DNA from: Bacteroidota bacterium
GTDB lineage: Bacteria; Bacteroidota; Bacteroidia; Flavobacteriales; Schleiferiaceae
NCBI GenBank assembly: GCA_024742495.1
Contig: JANSYJ010000008.1
Coordinates: 62,001-126,000 of the forward strand
Direction of reading: 5' to 3'
Length of the DNA: 64,000 nt
The stretch's first letter is position 1. Each line of letters begins with the position of its first letter. Position numbers and translations under genes: made by a program. The notes beneath the pieces are model-generated. The model was given only the letters and a program-made list of their open reading frames with translations. It ran no database searches and was not told where the DNA came from. Of this stretch, positions 54,823 through 59,268 are shown one piece after another.

Positions 54823-56187
54823 ATGCAAAGTTTTAAAAATTGGTTTTTGCTTTTTAGTTTATTGGCCCTAAGTCTTTTACTGGCCTGGGTATTAATGGTA
54901 CAGCATTGGTGGATCTTCTCCCTGCTCCTCTTTTTAGTTTGGGCCTTTAATGCCTATTTGCTGCTAGGCCAACTGCAGAAACTCGACCATGATTTAGATC
55001 GAAGTCTAAGCAACAGTTTGGCTCAGGATTACAATTTCCAGTTCTCCGAAAAAAACGCCAATCCCAGTCAGAAAAAATTTTATCAGTTGCTTAATTTATG
55101 GTCGACCCAGCTGCGAAGCTTTAAACAGAACCGTGAGGAGCAAAACCAATTTTTACGTCAGCTTATAGTTAAGCTTCCCTTTAGCATTCTGGTAATGGAA
55201 AGTGACGGTCGATTAGTGAATTTAAGTGGGGACCAAACCACACTTCCAGGAGCCAGGCATAGCTTAAGCGCGGAAGACTGGCCTCAGGTTTTTCCATTTT
55301 TAAGAAAGGTCATCGATAGCAAAGAAGAGGAACAGAAACTTCTACTAAATCAGGATGGGGAACAGCAAATTTGGATGATCCAAAAACGACATCTGCGCGA
55401 AGCGAAAGAAGAACGCACCCTTATTATTATGCGCAATATCCAAGGTGAACATGAACGGCAGGAAGGAGATGCCTTGGATAAAATTTTACATGTACTCACC
55501 CATGAAATCATGAACTCCGTAAGTCCGATTAACTCCTTGGCGGATACCATGGAGGATCAGCTAGGGCTCCCACAGGCAGCGCAGGAGAAATTCCAATTAA
55601 GCAAAGAGCAATTTGAGGATTTACAACGCACTGCAGCCATTATAAAACGCAGAAGCACCGGTTTAATGGGTTTCGTGGAGCGCTATGCTCAATTTGCCAG
55701 ATTACCCAAAATTCGAAAAGTGGAACTAAACTGGAAAACCTTTTTGAAGGAGTTGCACCAATTGCAGCAGGCAGAACTAAAAACTAAGGCCATTAACTTT
55801 AATTTGCGCCTTATCAACTGGCAGCGACCGCTCTATGCCGATCGAGATTTACTTAGCCAAGTGATTCTTAATCTGCTACGAAATGCTTTGGAGAATATAG
55901 CAGAAGATAGAGTGGATGAAAATGCCAAGGGCGAAAAAAACGAAGATGAAATTATCCTAGAGCTCGATCAGGGCGATGGCTATCATTACTTAAAAATTAT
56001 TGACAATGGTCCGCAAATAGATGCAGCGCTTCTCGACCAAATCTTCATTCCTTTTTTCAGCACCAAAAAACGCGGTTCTGGAATTGGCTTGAGCCTCGCC
56101 AGAAAAATCGCTCTAGCGCATGGAGGACGACTCTATCTCCAGCAAAAAGAAGGTTTTAAGGCCTTTTGTCTCGACCTCCCATTTTAG
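54823..56187 (+). CDS. Membrane sensor histidine kinase
   Basis: This 454-residue kinase has two adjacent N-terminal membrane helices (about residues 7-26 and 30-48) with almost no periplasmic loop, so the signal is probably sensed in the membrane or cytoplasm. A PAS-like segment spans about 110-205. The phosphorylated His227 lies in LTHEIMNSVSPI. The N box is LRNALENI, the G1 box IDNGP and the G2 box GSGIGLSLARKIALAHGG. It is the partner of the regulator 4 bases upstream. A membrane-stress or drug signal is inference from the linked efflux operon. Confidence 0.93.
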   Translation: MQSFKNWFLLFSLLALSLLLAWVLMVQHWWIFSLLLFLVWAFNAYLLLGQLQKLDHDLDRSLSNSLAQDYNFQFSEKNANPSQKKFYQLLNLWSTQLRSFKQNREEQNQFLRQLIVKLPFSILVMESDGRLVNLSGDQTTLPGARHSLSAEDWPQVFPFLRKVIDSKEEEQKLLLNQDGEQQIWMIQKRHLREAKEERTLIIMRNIQGEHERQEGDALDKILHVLTHEIMNSVSPINSLADTMEDQLGLPQAAQEKFQLSKEQFEDLQRTAAIIKRRSTGLMGFVERYAQFARLPKIRKVELNWKTFLKELHQLQQAELKTKAINFNLRLINWQRPLYADRDLLSQVILNLLRNALENIAEDRVDENAKGEKNEDEIILELDQGDGYHYLKIIDNGPQIDAALLDQIFIPFFSTKKRGSGIGLSLARKIALAHGGRLYLQQKEGFKAFCLDLPF

Positions 56188-56219
56188 GCCCATAGTCGGG
56201 TGAAAGAAGAGCCGAGCCT

Positions 56220-56254
56220 AAAAAAAAACGCGATCGTATGCATACAACCGCGTT
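56220..56254 (-). terminator. Terminator of the small coiled-coil gene
   Basis: On the minus strand AACGCG, an inner palindrome GTATGCATAC and CGCGTT form a long hairpin followed by nine T residues. It lies 29 bases past the stop of the gene at 56283, supporting that gene as a real transcription unit. Confidence 0.85.
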
Positions 56255-56282
56255 ATACTCCATTACGGAAAAACCAGTCGAA

Positions 56283-56477
56283 CTAAGAATTTCGTTTTCT
56301 AGTTGGATATAACTTTTGCTTAAAATCTGTGATTTCATCTTTCAATTTCTTGTTGGCGCTATTCAGTAATTCATTTTGATGCTTCATGATACTCAATAGA
56401 TCATGCATAGCATTGAGGTTTTCTAGTTGGACGGTAACGATTTGTTCTAAATCAGCTTTGGTATATCTTATACTCAT
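56283..56477 (-). CDS. Small coiled-coil protein next to the restriction system, function unknown
   Basis: This 64-residue protein starts at the ATG at 56477; a TTG two codons upstream is less likely. Residues 8-52 are strongly helical with heptad-like leucines and isoleucines (IVTVQLENLNAMHDLL, LLNSANKKLKDEI), suggesting a coiled-coil dimer. The tail PTRKRNS is basic. No family is recognised. It is divergent from the controller-like gene, shares with it a 148-base region full of palindromes, and has a strong terminator. It may belong to the restriction island or be a resident gene. Confidence 0.6.
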   Translation of the reverse strand: MSIRYTKADLEQIVTVQLENLNAMHDLLSIMKHQNELLNSANKKLKDEITDFKQKLYPTRKRNS

Positions 56478-56488
56478 ATTCAATAGAT

Positions 56489-56503
56489 TTTAGATTATCT
56501 AAA
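56489..56503. promoter_or_regulatory. Perfect palindrome, operator candidate 1
   Basis: TTTAGA, spacer TTA and TCTAAA form a perfect 15-base palindrome in the divergent region between the coiled-coil gene and the controller-like gene. It lies 12 bases before the coiled-coil ATG. Confidence 0.5.
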
Positions 56504-56525
56504 CTATAGTTCGATTATTGAGACT

Positions 56526-56539
56526 AAAGTAATTACTTT
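56526..56539. promoter_or_regulatory. Perfect palindrome, operator candidate 2
   Basis: AAAGTAA and TTACTTT abut to form a 14-base perfect palindrome, in the middle of the divergent region. It overlaps the left arm of the next inverted repeat. Confidence 0.5.
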
Positions 56540-56569
56540 CTGTATAGATTCCAAAAATTAGTACAGAAA
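56537..56569. promoter_or_regulatory. Inverted repeat, operator candidate 3
   Basis: TTTCTGTA (56537-56544) and TACAGAAA (56562-56569) are perfect inverted arms with a 17-base spacer. The spacing suits a pair of half-sites or two overlapping operators for a small helix-turn-helix dimer. Confidence 0.5.
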
Positions 56570-56625
56570 TTCTAAACTATTGTATTAATAAGCTAAATTT
56601 GAATACTGATAATCGAAAAACCAGT

Positions 56626-56841
56626 ATGACAGAACTCGGAAATTATTTATCAAGAAAATCCGCTAGTAAGGCCGAGATATCTAAGAAGACGGGAATTAGT
56701 AAATCCAGAATCAGCGAGCTAACATTAAACGTTTCTACCCAATTAAGAGCTAGAGAACTTTATTTAATAGCTCTTGCCTTGGATGTGGCTCCGGGAGAAA
56801 TGTTTGAAGAAATATATAACGGATTAAAATTAGAGAATTAA
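56626..56841 (+). CDS. XRE-type helix-turn-helix protein, probable restriction controller
   Basis: This 71-residue protein starts at the ATG at 56626; a TTG at 56599 would add nine residues. It is nearly all helix-turn-helix: KAEISKKTGISKSRISELTLN is the DNA-binding unit, and LIALALDVAPGEMFEEI is the usual final helix. Its size and position, 8 bases before a DNA methyltransferase and with an endonuclease after that, fit the controller (C) proteins of type II systems, which delay endonuclease synthesis. The palindromes upstream are its likely targets. A plain XRE regulator is the alternative. Confidence 0.8.
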   Translation: MTELGNYLSRKSASKAEISKKTGISKSRISELTLNVSTQLRARELYLIALALDVAPGEMFEEIYNGLKLEN

Positions 56842-56849
56842 GATAATTT

Positions 56850-58421
56850 GTGAATTGTATAGATTTATATAGTGGTATTGGAGGTTGGACTTTAGGCATG
56901 AAGCTCAATGGAATTGAACACATAAAATCTTTTGAATGGAATAAAGATTCTAACCTAACGCACAACCTAAATTTTGGGACTAATACCAGAGAAATAGATA
57001 TTAGGAAACTTGATTTCTATACATCCCTGCCGGAGGTCGGATCAATAGATTTTGTTGTTGGTAGTCCACCTTGTACACAATTCTCCTACGCTAATAAAGG
57101 TGGTGGTGGAGATATACAAGATGGATTGATAGATATGTATCAATTTCTTTCTGTAGTAGAATACCTCAAGCCTAAGTATTGGGCAATGGAAAACGTACCT
57201 CGCGTTAAGAACATTCTTCAAAAAGTCTTAAACGAAGATGCAAAATTTAAGCGCTTCAAAAAACTATTCAATTATATAGAAGTTGTGGATTCCAGTGAAT
57301 ATGGAGCCCCTCAAAAACGAAAGAGAATGATTGCAGGGAATTTCCCTTTTGAATTATTTGAAGCTTATAAAAGTAAAACCGAAGCAAAAACCTTAGGAGA
57401 TGTTCTTGAAGCTTTAAGCAACAAAGATGTGATCGATCCAATTTATGGATATTCCATTCCTAAATCCGAATTAACTGATCACATTACTGAAGAAGTTTTA
57501 AATTTTGAAGAACTAAGAATAAACAAGGAATCAAAAACTTATCATCCTATATATAATGGCATGTCCTTTCCTGAAAGACTTGACAAACCCTCCCGTACAA
57601 TTACTTCTACTTGTACCAGAGTTTCAAGAGAAAGTTTAGTTATACAAAATGGAATTGGATTTAGAAGACTTACGGTTAGAGAAAGAGGAACATTAATGGG
57701 GTTTCCAGTTACGTATCAATTTTATGGAAAATCTTACAATTCAAAGTTAAAGATGATTGGAAATGCAATTCCTCCAATTTTAACTTATTACATATTTCAA
57801 AGTATGTTAGAAGTTCCTTCAGGAAAACTAACATTGATTCATGAAACAAACAAATATCATCATGAATCACCATCCTTTAAGACACCGCATACACCTCCCG
57901 ATAAAGTAAAATTCAAGTACAAAGAAAGCAGATCATTCAGACTGGCAATTCCAGAATATAGATTTGGAAGCGGAGTACGATTCGAGTTGTCAAATAAATT
58001 CAACAAAGAGAACTGTCTTTGGAGTATAAAATTCTTCTATGGCTCATCTACTAAGATAATGGAAGTCAAATTCAATAATAAAAGATATGATAAAACTATA
58101 CAACTTATAAAAAGTCAGAATATAGATATTACTCCCTTTATAGATAATATCATTTCCTACTCAAAGGAACTGAGTTCTTCAGAATTACAAAAAAGATGGA
58201 CTCATAAATCAAAAGAACTTACCCACCCATATGAAGCAATAGACAATCTTTCCAAACTTGGTCTTAAAATTAAAAAGAGACTTAATGGACTAAAAATTAA
58301 TGATTCTGAGTTTTCATCAATTGTTGGAGAGAATTTGAACTCAAAATTATTCGATCACAAAGAGTTAATCCTATCAGGAATAATACTAGGATACAACTTT
58401 AATAATAACATTAGACCATGA
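56850..58421 (+). CDS. DNA cytosine-5 methyltransferase with a C-terminal extension
   Basis: This 523-residue enzyme has all main cytosine-5 motifs: IDLYSGIGG (4-12) for S-adenosylmethionine, PPC (73-75) with the catalytic Cys75, ENV (114-116), QKRKR (155-159), RRLTVRERGTLMGFP (272-286) and GNA (304-306). The target-recognition segment between about 195 and 265 is short. About 200 residues follow motif X (from about 325), a length I do not expect in this family, and I do not recognise them. The start is GTG at 56850, directly before motif I. It overlaps the endonuclease gene by 4 bases (ATGA). Confidence 0.93.
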   Translation: MNCIDLYSGIGGWTLGMKLNGIEHIKSFEWNKDSNLTHNLNFGTNTREIDIRKLDFYTSLPEVGSIDFVVGSPPCTQFSYANKGGGGDIQDGLIDMYQFLSVVEYLKPKYWAMENVPRVKNILQKVLNEDAKFKRFKKLFNYIEVVDSSEYGAPQKRKRMIAGNFPFELFEAYKSKTEAKTLGDVLEALSNKDVIDPIYGYSIPKSELTDHITEEVLNFEELRINKESKTYHPIYNGMSFPERLDKPSRTITSTCTRVSRESLVIQNGIGFRRLTVRERGTLMGFPVTYQFYGKSYNSKLKMIGNAIPPILTYYIFQSMLEVPSGKLTLIHETNKYHHESPSFKTPHTPPDKVKFKYKESRSFRLAIPEYRFGSGVRFELSNKFNKENCLWSIKFFYGSSTKIMEVKFNNKRYDKTIQLIKSQNIDITPFIDNIISYSKELSSSELQKRWTHKSKELTHPYEAIDNLSKLGLKIKKRLNGLKINDSEFSSIVGENLNSKLFDHKELILSGIILGYNFNNNIRP

Positions 58422-59029
58422 AAATTCAATTTACCTATTCTCATCTAAATGGGCTAGAGTGGCTATTACATCATCACCCTAAACTTTGGAAAGAAATCAA
58501 GAGTTCAATCGAAAGTGTGGATTCTGAAAAATGTAAAACAAAAACGAGTAAAGAAAAGACTATGAAAGGTAAAGTCTTGTACTCACCTATTGACATGAAT
58601 TCTGAAATGAAAAAGGAATTTGAATCTCGTGGTTGGAGTGAGGAAAGATACACCTATTATGTAACAGACGACCATAAGTTAACAAGGCATATAGTCAATT
58701 TACCAAGCGAAAAGCAAAAGAAGTATATAGAAGAATCGGGGGCTACTCCAATTCAGTCTTATCACCAAACGGATTTTGTGAAAAATCGAGTTTCTGTTGA
58801 GGTTCAATTTGGAAAATATCCGTTTATCGAATTTGATTTATTTGTTAAACATCTTGGATTTTTTATTGGAGATAATATCGATTTGGGAATAGAAATTATT
58901 CCTACCAAAGCTTTACAAAGTCAAATGTCATCAGGTCCAGGATATTACGAAAGAACTTTATCACATATATTAAGACAAGGTAGAGGGAATCCGTCTGTAC
59001 CATTGATAATTATTGGAGTGGAACCATAA
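58418..59029 (+). CDS. BglII-like type II restriction endonuclease
   Basis: This 203-residue protein follows a DNA methyltransferase with an ATGA overlap. Asp119, Glu128 and Gln130 (in FVKNRVSVEVQFG and the preceding TD) have the spacing of the BglII active site, Asp84, Glu93 and Gln95. The length (BglII has 223 residues) and the motif FDLF with GPGYYERTL after it also fit. I therefore assign it to the BglII-like PD-(D/E)XK group. The recognition site cannot be read from sequence. BglII cuts AGATCT, but its own methyltransferase makes N4-methylcytosine, unlike the partner here. Confidence 0.8.
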   Translation: MKIQFTYSHLNGLEWLLHHHPKLWKEIKSSIESVDSEKCKTKTSKEKTMKGKVLYSPIDMNSEMKKEFESRGWSEERYTYYVTDDHKLTRHIVNLPSEKQKKYIEESGATPIQSYHQTDFVKNRVSVEVQFGKYPFIEFDLFVKHLGFFIGDNIDLGIEIIPTKALQSQMSSGPGYYERTLSHILRQGRGNPSVPLIIIGVEP

Positions 59030-59051
59030 AAGCGGTATACAAAATGCTTAT

Positions 59052-59067
59052 CCGCCCTTAGGGGCGG
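59052..59067. terminator. GC-rich hairpin between converging genes
   Basis: CCGCCC (59052-59057) and GGGCGG (59062-59067) pair around TTAG. It has no T tract on either side, so it may only partly terminate the endonuclease and the gene at 59068, or protect their 3' ends. Confidence 0.45.
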
Positions 59068-59268
59068 CTATGACATCCTATACAGATCGTAATGAGTAAT
59101 TAAAGATTCAATCTCTTTGGTTCTAGGGCTCACCCACACGATACCAATTAAAATAAAGGCAATGCCACTTACCATTGGCGGTCGCATGATATTTCCGCCT
59201 TCAGGCATACTTAAGTAAATCATATAGGCTCCCAGAATAAGGAGGATTATCGCTACAATTTTCTTCAT
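59068..59268 (-). CDS. Small two-helix membrane protein
   Basis: This 66-residue protein has two hydrophobic segments (about residues 3-20 and 33-48) and a short polar C-terminal tail. No family is recognised. It stands alone, converging on the endonuclease gene. Its base composition looks like that of the rest of the chromosome, so it probably lies just outside the restriction island. Confidence 0.55.
   Translation of the reverse strand: MKKIVAIILLILGAYMIYLSMPEGGNIMRPPMVSGIAFILIGIVWVSPRTKEIESLITHYDLYRMS

What the first reader, a model, noticed from the sequence alone, without database searches (positions are those of the whole stretch)
56283..59029. BglII-like restriction system paired with a cytosine-5 methyltransferase
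The endonuclease keeps the Asp, Glu and Gln spacing of BglII (119, 128, 130), yet its partner is a cytosine-5 enzyme with all standard motifs. BglII itself is paired with an N4-cytosine enzyme. The region is visibly richer in A and T than its neighbours and has a controller-like gene, so it looks like an acquired island. Its target sequence may be AGATCT with a different methylation, or something new.
Basis: partly seen in the sequence, partly recalled or inferred. Interest (0 to 1): 0.72.

Follow-up and report, generated by a model that had tools for sequence, protein, structure and literature searches.

The report
BstYI-type restriction enzyme, m5C partner
A small acquired DNA island carries a DNA-cutting enzyme very like the known enzyme BstYI, but its protective partner belongs to a different chemical class of methylating enzyme from the one nearly all its relatives use; this is an uncommon pairing of two well-known kinds of enzyme.

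Summary
The endonuclease (58418-59029) is an orthologue of BstYI (RGATCY) rather than of BglII: 109 of 203 residues are identical in an ungapped full-length match, and BstYI is the top structure match. The likely target is therefore RGATCY, not AGATCT or something new. The partner (56850-58421) has the full set of cytosine-C5 methyltransferase motifs plus a roughly 200-residue C-terminal extension of unknown fold. Of 36 BstYI-type loci with a readable partner, 32 carry an SPPY-motif amino-methyltransferase (m4C-type by motif only). Four carry the C5 type: the window, an intact pair in a Cytophagales MAG, a deleted relic in a Porticoccaceae MAG, and a contig-edge tail in a Parcubacteria MAG. 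The island is A+T-rich (33% against 42% G+C) and absent at the same junction in a same-genus genome, so it was probably acquired. Other PF09195 nucleases pair with m6A enzymes on RGATCY in published work, so a C5 pair would add another protecting chemistry: a new variant of a known kind. No cleavage, methylation or m5C sensitivity has been shown, and a 461-kb sample of the genome shows no RGATCY avoidance.

The parts
56187..59124 (.). acquired island: stretch without homology to the junction in a same-genus genome
   Evidence: blastn homology to L094 (G1057) ends at 56186 and resumes at 59125; 87 nt lie between in L094. G+C 0.329
56283..56483 (-). 66-aa ORF, role unknown; may be cargo or may not be a gene
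   Evidence: ORF list; no family hit over a curated cut-off in Pfam or NCBIfam, none in PADLOC
56484..56598 (.). 115-bp spacer before the HTH gene, with imperfect direct and inverted repeats; candidate regulatory region
   Evidence: the repeat finder; no operator identified
56599..56841 (+). XRE/Cro-type helix-turn-helix protein, 80 aa from TTG (71 aa from the ATG at 56626); candidate controller
   Evidence: HTH_26 E 6.5e-7, HTH_3 E 4.4e-5
56850..58421 (+). cytosine-C5 DNA methyltransferase, 523 aa, GTG start; catalytic domain is residues 1 to about 320
   Evidence: PF00145 E 6e-43 over residues 1-319; 50% identity to the L034 MTase
57822..58418 (+). C-terminal extension of the MTase (about residues 325-523), fold unknown
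   Evidence: no Pfam, NCBIfam or PDB-sequence match there; shared with L034, L071 and, at its end, L029
58418..59029 (+). BstYI-type Type II restriction endonuclease, 203 aa; its ATG overlaps the MTase stop (ATGA)
   Evidence: BstYI E 1.2e-74, 109/203 identical; AlphaFold model to 1vrr TM 0.85
54823..56187 (+). left flank: sensor-kinase-like gene, the conserved border of the island
   Evidence: orthologue in same-genus G1057, 59% identity over residues 24-454
59068..59268 (-). right flank: 66-aa ORF whose first 46 residues match G1057 at 78%; its last 20 residues lie in the unmatched stretch

Best explanation
This is a horizontally acquired Type II restriction-modification system of BstYI type. 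The nuclease most likely recognises RGATCY as a dimer and cuts unmethylated DNA there. The upstream, probably translationally coupled C5 methyltransferase most likely makes 5-methylcytosine in the same site (probably RGATm5CY), and this, in place of the N4-methylcytosine inferred for most relatives, blocks the nuclease on self DNA. The small HTH protein just upstream probably regulates the operon. Shown: gene content, homology, active-site identity, gene layout, an empty junction in a relative, rarity of the pairing in my sample. Inferred: target, methylated base, nuclease sensitivity to m5C, coupling, HTH role.
For: Ungapped 203-residue match to BstYI, 54% identical. D119, E128, Q130 and K133 are identical in all 33 amino-MTase-type rows (BstYI included) and S172 in 31 of 33, with one T and one gap; that K133 and S172 govern BstYI specificity is recalled. 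BstYI is the top fold match. C5 motifs present in order. ATGA overlap of the MTase and REase genes, and directly abutting genes in L034. The same C5-plus-extension gene sits before a BstYI-type nuclease in L034; L046 keeps a relic of the pair (extension deleted) and L029 only the tail of the extension, so the association is not a one-genome accident. PF09195 or BglII/BstYI-family nucleases acting at RGATCY with m6A partners are published (PMC10734518 and PMC10287943, passages and one section each), so partner chemistry can vary at this site.
Against: No cleavage, methylome or m5C-sensitivity data. Whether a BstYI-type nuclease is blocked by RGATm5CY was not found in the paper searches made; isoschizomers do differ in methylation sensitivity (PMC10734518, passage: MflI is sensitive to 6mA, BstYI is not), so it cannot be assumed. 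The nuclease shows no residue clearly set apart in C5-linked rows. RGATCY is not avoided in the host sample (O/E 0.96 against 0.98 in a same-genus genome), so nothing there shows long-term activity; AGATCT alone is 0.76 against 0.90, a weak difference. The MTase's target was not tested.
Confidence: 0.77

Rival explanations
1. The nuclease has narrowed to AGATCT (BglII specificity), with m5C in that site.
For: Same superfamily as BglII; AGATCT is the most depleted of the RGATCY variants in the host sample (O/E 0.76 against 0.90 in the control genome).
Against: Far closer to BstYI than to BglII. K133 and S172, recalled as the residues whose change narrows BstYI towards AGATCT, are the BstYI residues here. 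The AGATCT depletion is small and one of several variants looked at.
Confidence: 0.08
2. The C5 MTase recognises a broader or different site that contains RGATCY (for example GATC), so it protects the nuclease's sites as a subset.
For: The MTase target region was not matched to any characterised one; a remote relative in a Haladaptatus plasmid lies near a MutH/Sau3AI-family nuclease gene, although another C5 gene lies between them.
Against: No direct evidence; the repeated pairing with BstYI-type nucleases (L034, L046, L029) suggests matched specificity but does not exclude this.
Confidence: 0.12
3. The system is inactive cargo: recently arrived, unexpressed or protecting nothing.
For: No RGATCY avoidance in the host sample; A+T-rich island, nuclease found in 1 of 20 genomes searched (its own); a related pair in a Porticoccaceae MAG has decayed (L046).
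Against: All three ORFs are open, the nuclease's catalytic residues are intact and the gene overlap is present.
Confidence: 0.1

Closest known systems
BstYI (R.BstYI, PDB 1sdo/1vrr/2p0j) and its R-M system
   Same: Nuclease length, ungapped 54% identity, catalytic and K133/S172 residues, fold
   Different: The BstYI MTase is described as 'possibly' an N4mC enzyme (PMC2890505, figure legend passage); here it is a C5 enzyme with an extra C-terminal region, plus an upstream HTH gene
BglII R-M system (AGATCT)
   Same: PF09195 superfamily, D-E-Q catalytic arrangement
   Different: Only remote sequence similarity (E 2e-5); M.BglII is named a known N4mC methylase (PMC2890505 passage), not C5; different expected target
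R.Nph3I/M.Nph3I (phage NrS-3) and the Acinetobacter baumannii A118 RMC cluster
   Same: PF09195 or BglII/BstYI-family nuclease with RGATCY as site; A118 also has an HTH gene in the cluster (PMC10734518, PMC10287943: passages and one section each)
   Different: Protecting mark is N6-methyladenine (RGm6ATCY)
Cytophagales MAG locus L034 (PCUU01000090)
   Same: Intact C5 MTase with the same extension (50% identity) directly followed by a BstYI-type nuclease
   Different: No ORF of 80 aa or more between the upstream transporter-like gene and the MTase, so no HTH gene of that size; its nuclease is closest to an amino-MTase-linked acidobacterial one (72%)

Membership tests
BglII/BstYI-type Type II endonuclease (PF09195) | Match to the family profile over its length | tested here: met
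   PF09195 E 1e-30, 107 bits against a cut-off of 26, profile positions 3-163 of 163
BglII/BstYI-type Type II endonuclease (PF09195) | Catalytic Asp, Glu, Gln in register | tested here: met
   D119, E128, Q130 identical to BstYI and in all 33 amino-MTase-type rows, BstYI included
BglII/BstYI-type Type II endonuclease (PF09195) | Fold of the BglII/BamHI group | tested here: met
   Model mean pLDDT 74 (133-143 and 173-191 under 50); top matches BstYI (TM 0.85), BglII, BamHI, OkrAI
BstYI specificity (RGATCY) | Residues linked to recognition of the outer base pair (K133, S172; role recalled) | tested here: met
   Both identical to BstYI
BstYI specificity (RGATCY) | Cleavage of all four RGATCY variants | not testable with these tools
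   Needs purified enzyme
BstYI/BglII-type R-M system with amino-MTase partner | Adjacent SPPY-motif (m4C-type) amino-methyltransferase | tested here: not met
   The adjacent gene is C5 (PF00145); no SPPY- or DPP-motif ORF within 1.5 kb of the nuclease
Cytosine-C5 DNA methyltransferase | Ordered catalytic motifs and PF00145 | tested here: met
   PF00145 E 6e-43; PPCTQFS, ENV, QKRKR, RLTVRE, GNAIPP present
C-protein-controlled R-M system | Small HTH gene just upstream in the same orientation | tested here: met
   ORF 56599-56841, 8 nt before the MTase
C-protein-controlled R-M system | Similarity to known C proteins of solved structure | tested here: not met
   Only weak SinR matches among PDB sequences, E 0.008-0.018
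C-protein-controlled R-M system | C-box operator upstream | tested here: inconclusive
   Only imperfect repeats in 56484-56598; no C-box pattern was searched

The most novel reading that the evidence does not exclude
A distinct C5 methyltransferase lineage with its own C-terminal domain has replaced the amino-methyltransferase in front of BstYI-type nucleases, perhaps more than once, so that one nuclease scaffold and one site (RGATCY) are naturally protected by m4C, m6A and m5C; the extra domain may be what lets the newcomer take over safely, for example by timing or repressing the nuclease.
Probability: 0.25. Interest if true: 0.55.

Novelty: new variant of a known kind. Interest (0 to 1): 0.33.

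Why it matters
If the MTase marks RGATm5CY and that blocks the nuclease, one nuclease family and one target site would be protected in nature by all three known methylation chemistries. That is a clean system for asking how restriction enzymes and their protecting enzymes change partners without killing the host. It would also supply an RGATCY m5C methylase as a reagent.

Tried and rejected
Considered and rejected: (a) 'BglII system' - BstYI is far closer. (b) 'One-genome accident' - L034 is a second intact pair and L046 and L029 hold traces. (c) 'Single origin of the C5 pairing, shown by tree' - C5-linked nucleases did not form a clade in the four trees, but one clade was not rejected (p-AU 0.22; 0.28). 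L046 was left out of the last three trees because only 101 residues survive; with it included it sat next to the window on a long branch. (d) Nuclease residues marking the C5 partner - none convincing. (e) Phage carriage of the C5 pair - pattern-based scans of viral contigs found no relative of the MTase or of the nuclease; these find close relatives only. Four phage records (2 phages, each listed twice) hold a BstYI-type nuclease; in the one opened the adjacent MTase has the SPPY motif (L076).

Led nowhere: the AlphaFold model of the MTase from a two-sequence alignment (mean pLDDT 33) was useless, so the fold of its extension is unknown. Family and PDB-sequence searches gave nothing for the extension. 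RGATCY avoidance was null. Zero RGATCY sites in the island is not significant at about 0.64 sites per kb in the rest of the window. A search for a target-site duplication between the two ends of the island found only a 7-base shared word, as expected by chance. The literature on BstYI engineering and structure is not held, so the roles of K133 and S172 are recalled.

Full report
WHAT IS THERE. Window 56187-59124 holds, on the plus strand, an 80-aa HTH ORF (56599-56841, TTG start; 71 aa from an ATG at 56626), a 523-aa MTase ORF (56850-58421, GTG start) and a 203-aa nuclease ORF (58418-59029); a 66-aa minus-strand ORF lies at 56283-56483. The HTH stop and the MTase start are 8 nt apart, and the nuclease ATG overlaps the MTase stop. 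The GTG start is supported by the relatives: L046 has an in-frame ATG at the equivalent residue, and L034 starts one residue earlier.

THE NUCLEASE IS BstYI-LIKE. Pfam gives Endonuc-BglII at E 1e-30 and PADLOC a full-length Type II nuclease match (203 of 203 profile positions). Among PDB sequences only two match at E up to 10: BstYI (E 1.2e-74, residues 1-203 to 1-203) and BglII (E 1.9e-5, pieces only). Ungapped, 109 of 203 residues equal BstYI, including D119, E128, Q130, K133 and S172. The AlphaFold model (15 sequences, mean pLDDT 74) matches BstYI best (TM 0.85), then BglII, BamHI and OkrAI; these are all 15 matches at E <= 0.001. Stretches 133-143 and 173-191 of the model are below pLDDT 50. 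I recall that K133 and S172 were the positions changed to narrow BstYI towards AGATCT; the papers are not held. Expected target: RGATCY.

THE PARTNER IS A C5 ENZYME WITH AN EXTENSION. PF00145 matches residues 1-319 at E 6e-43. The C-terminal about 200 residues match no Pfam or NCBIfam family or PDB sequence. They recur in L034 (Cytophagales MAG; MTase 50% identical overall), in a Burkholderia plasmid where MTase domain and extension are in two overlapping ORFs (L071), weakly in a Rhizobium plasmid (L072), and as a tail in L029. In L071, none of the ORFs of 100 aa or more that I searched is a BstYI-type nuclease; it has DrmA-like pieces nearby.

HOW UNUSUAL IS THE PAIR. I collected nuclease loci with the window's nuclease or PF09195 as query: 395 genomes of the window's phylum with PF09195 (25 of 395 match, 27 loci), the GTDB contig scan (23 loci), plasmids (5 records; 3 opened), phages (4 records; 1 opened), and 398, 199, 194 and 192 genomes of the phyla of four of these loci (1, 10, 5 and 4 with a match, the seed genome included each time). 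Among distinct loci with a nuclease of about 200 bits or more, or an identified relic, and a readable partner, 32 carry an amino-MTase with the SPPYN motif: 24 (L036 from its truncated C-terminal part; in L040 the MTase is on the other strand) and 8. Four carry the C5 type: window, L034, L046 (relic) and L029 (tail at contig edge, so its C5 domain is not seen). Dropped before this count: 13 PF09195 loci that the window's nuclease does not match at E 1e-6 (L001-L008, L021, L024-L027); repeats of the same locus (L011, L081, L098, L140, L149, L151, L154); loci whose contig starts inside the nuclease (L044, L045); loci with no partner seen within 1.5 kb (L013, L014, L075); fragments (L022, L047-L050, L157, and L147, which has an SPPY neighbour); and divergent nucleases (L016, L023, L144-L146, L148, L153, L158), which also lie beside SPPY-type ORFs. 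The m4C label is an inference from the motif; four such MTases were checked and are PF01555, a family that covers both N4 and N6 enzymes. The queries came from the window itself, so the sample is centred on it.

RELIC. In L046 the MTase reads into motif VI and then, after a deletion, into the second half of a BstYI-type nuclease. Over the surviving 101 nuclease residues it is the window's closest relative by identity (70%), and its MTase part is 68% identical over residues 1-123.

ORIGIN OF THE PAIRING. Trees of 28 and 36 nucleases do not group window, L034 and L029, but their backbones are poorly resolved and one clade is not rejected (p-AU 0.22; 0.28). A quick tree put L034 and L029 with seven amino-MTase-linked nucleases (SH-aLRT 97). 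One switch or several: undecided.

ACQUISITION. G+C is 0.329 in the island against 0.423 in a 461-kb host sample. In same-genus G1057, homology to the window ends at 56186 (end of the sensor-kinase gene) and resumes at 59125, with 87 nt between. Three other same-genus genomes keep the kinase beside the same regulator, but none of the window's next genes was found in the 6.5-7 kb fetched beyond it; the remaining two same-genus genomes have only distant kinase matches. The nuclease is in 1 of 20 genomes searched (own only). No target-site duplication was evident.

ACTIVITY. RGATCY observed/expected is 0.96 in the host sample and 0.98 in same-genus G1060, which lacks the nuclease. AGATCT is 0.76 against 0.90 (counts on both strands, 136 against 179 expected in the host). 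This gives no evidence of long-term restriction; it fits recent arrival or weak effect.

WHAT IS KNOWN. PMC10734518 (passages and section 6 seen): R.Nph3I, a PF09195 nuclease, cuts RGATCY and its partner makes RGm6ATCY; the same paper says BstYI is not sensitive to 6mA while MflI is. PMC10287943 (passages and section 18 seen): A. baumannii A118 has a BglII/BstYI-family nuclease, an HTH gene and an annotated adenine methylase, with m6A at RGATCY. PMC2890505 (passages seen): M.BglII is named a known, and M.BstYI possibly an, N4mC methylase. In my own survey PF09195 loci also lie beside MT-A70 and D12-type MTases. So partner chemistry in this family is already known to vary. I saw no report of a C5 partner in the listings of my searches (full texts not read); REBASE could not be searched and may list such pairs.

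VERDICT. A real, probably acquired, plausibly functional BstYI-type system with an uncommon C5 partner and an uncharacterised MTase extension. Interesting to R-M specialists; not a new kind of system.

Noticed in passing
L046:4574-5312: Fossil of the same C5-MTase/BstYI pair in a Porticoccaceae MAG: an internal deletion joins the first part of the MTase to the second half of the nuclease.
   Followed up: yes
L071:3977-8867 (Burkholderia aenigmatica plasmid NZ_CP091649.1): The closest plasmid relative of the MTase has its catalytic domain and extension in two overlapping ORFs, near pieces resembling DrmA of DISARM.
   Followed up: partly
L075:124-735 (Komagataeibacter saccharivorans plasmid p4904): A BstYI-type nuclease on a 4.9-kb plasmid typed as mobilizable, with no methyltransferase among its six listed genes (the gene table may be incomplete).
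   Followed up: partly
L001-L008 (same-phylum genomes): In another PF09195 subgroup, L001, L002 and L004-L008 have DPPW-motif ORFs near the nuclease; the two tested (L001, L002) are MT-A70 family. L003 has a D12-class one instead.
   Followed up: partly
L003 and L026 (G186:C1:1213332-1214593): Two PF09195 nuclease matches lie back to back on opposite strands in one genome, with a D12-class adenine MTase ORF at L003:251-1477.
   Followed up: no
L076:2060-3612 (Burkholderia phage BcepIL02): A phage genome carries a BstYI-type nuclease with an SPPY-motif methyltransferase, just upstream of a ligase gene and the terminase large-subunit gene.
   Followed up: no
G000:C30:488144-489172: The window's genome has a second, only distantly related C5 methyltransferase match (30% identity over query residues 4-322).
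   Followed up: no
window 56227-56254: A 12-bp-stem palindrome followed by a T run on the minus strand, just beyond the end of the 66-aa minus-strand ORF; terminator-like by consensus scan only.
   Followed up: no
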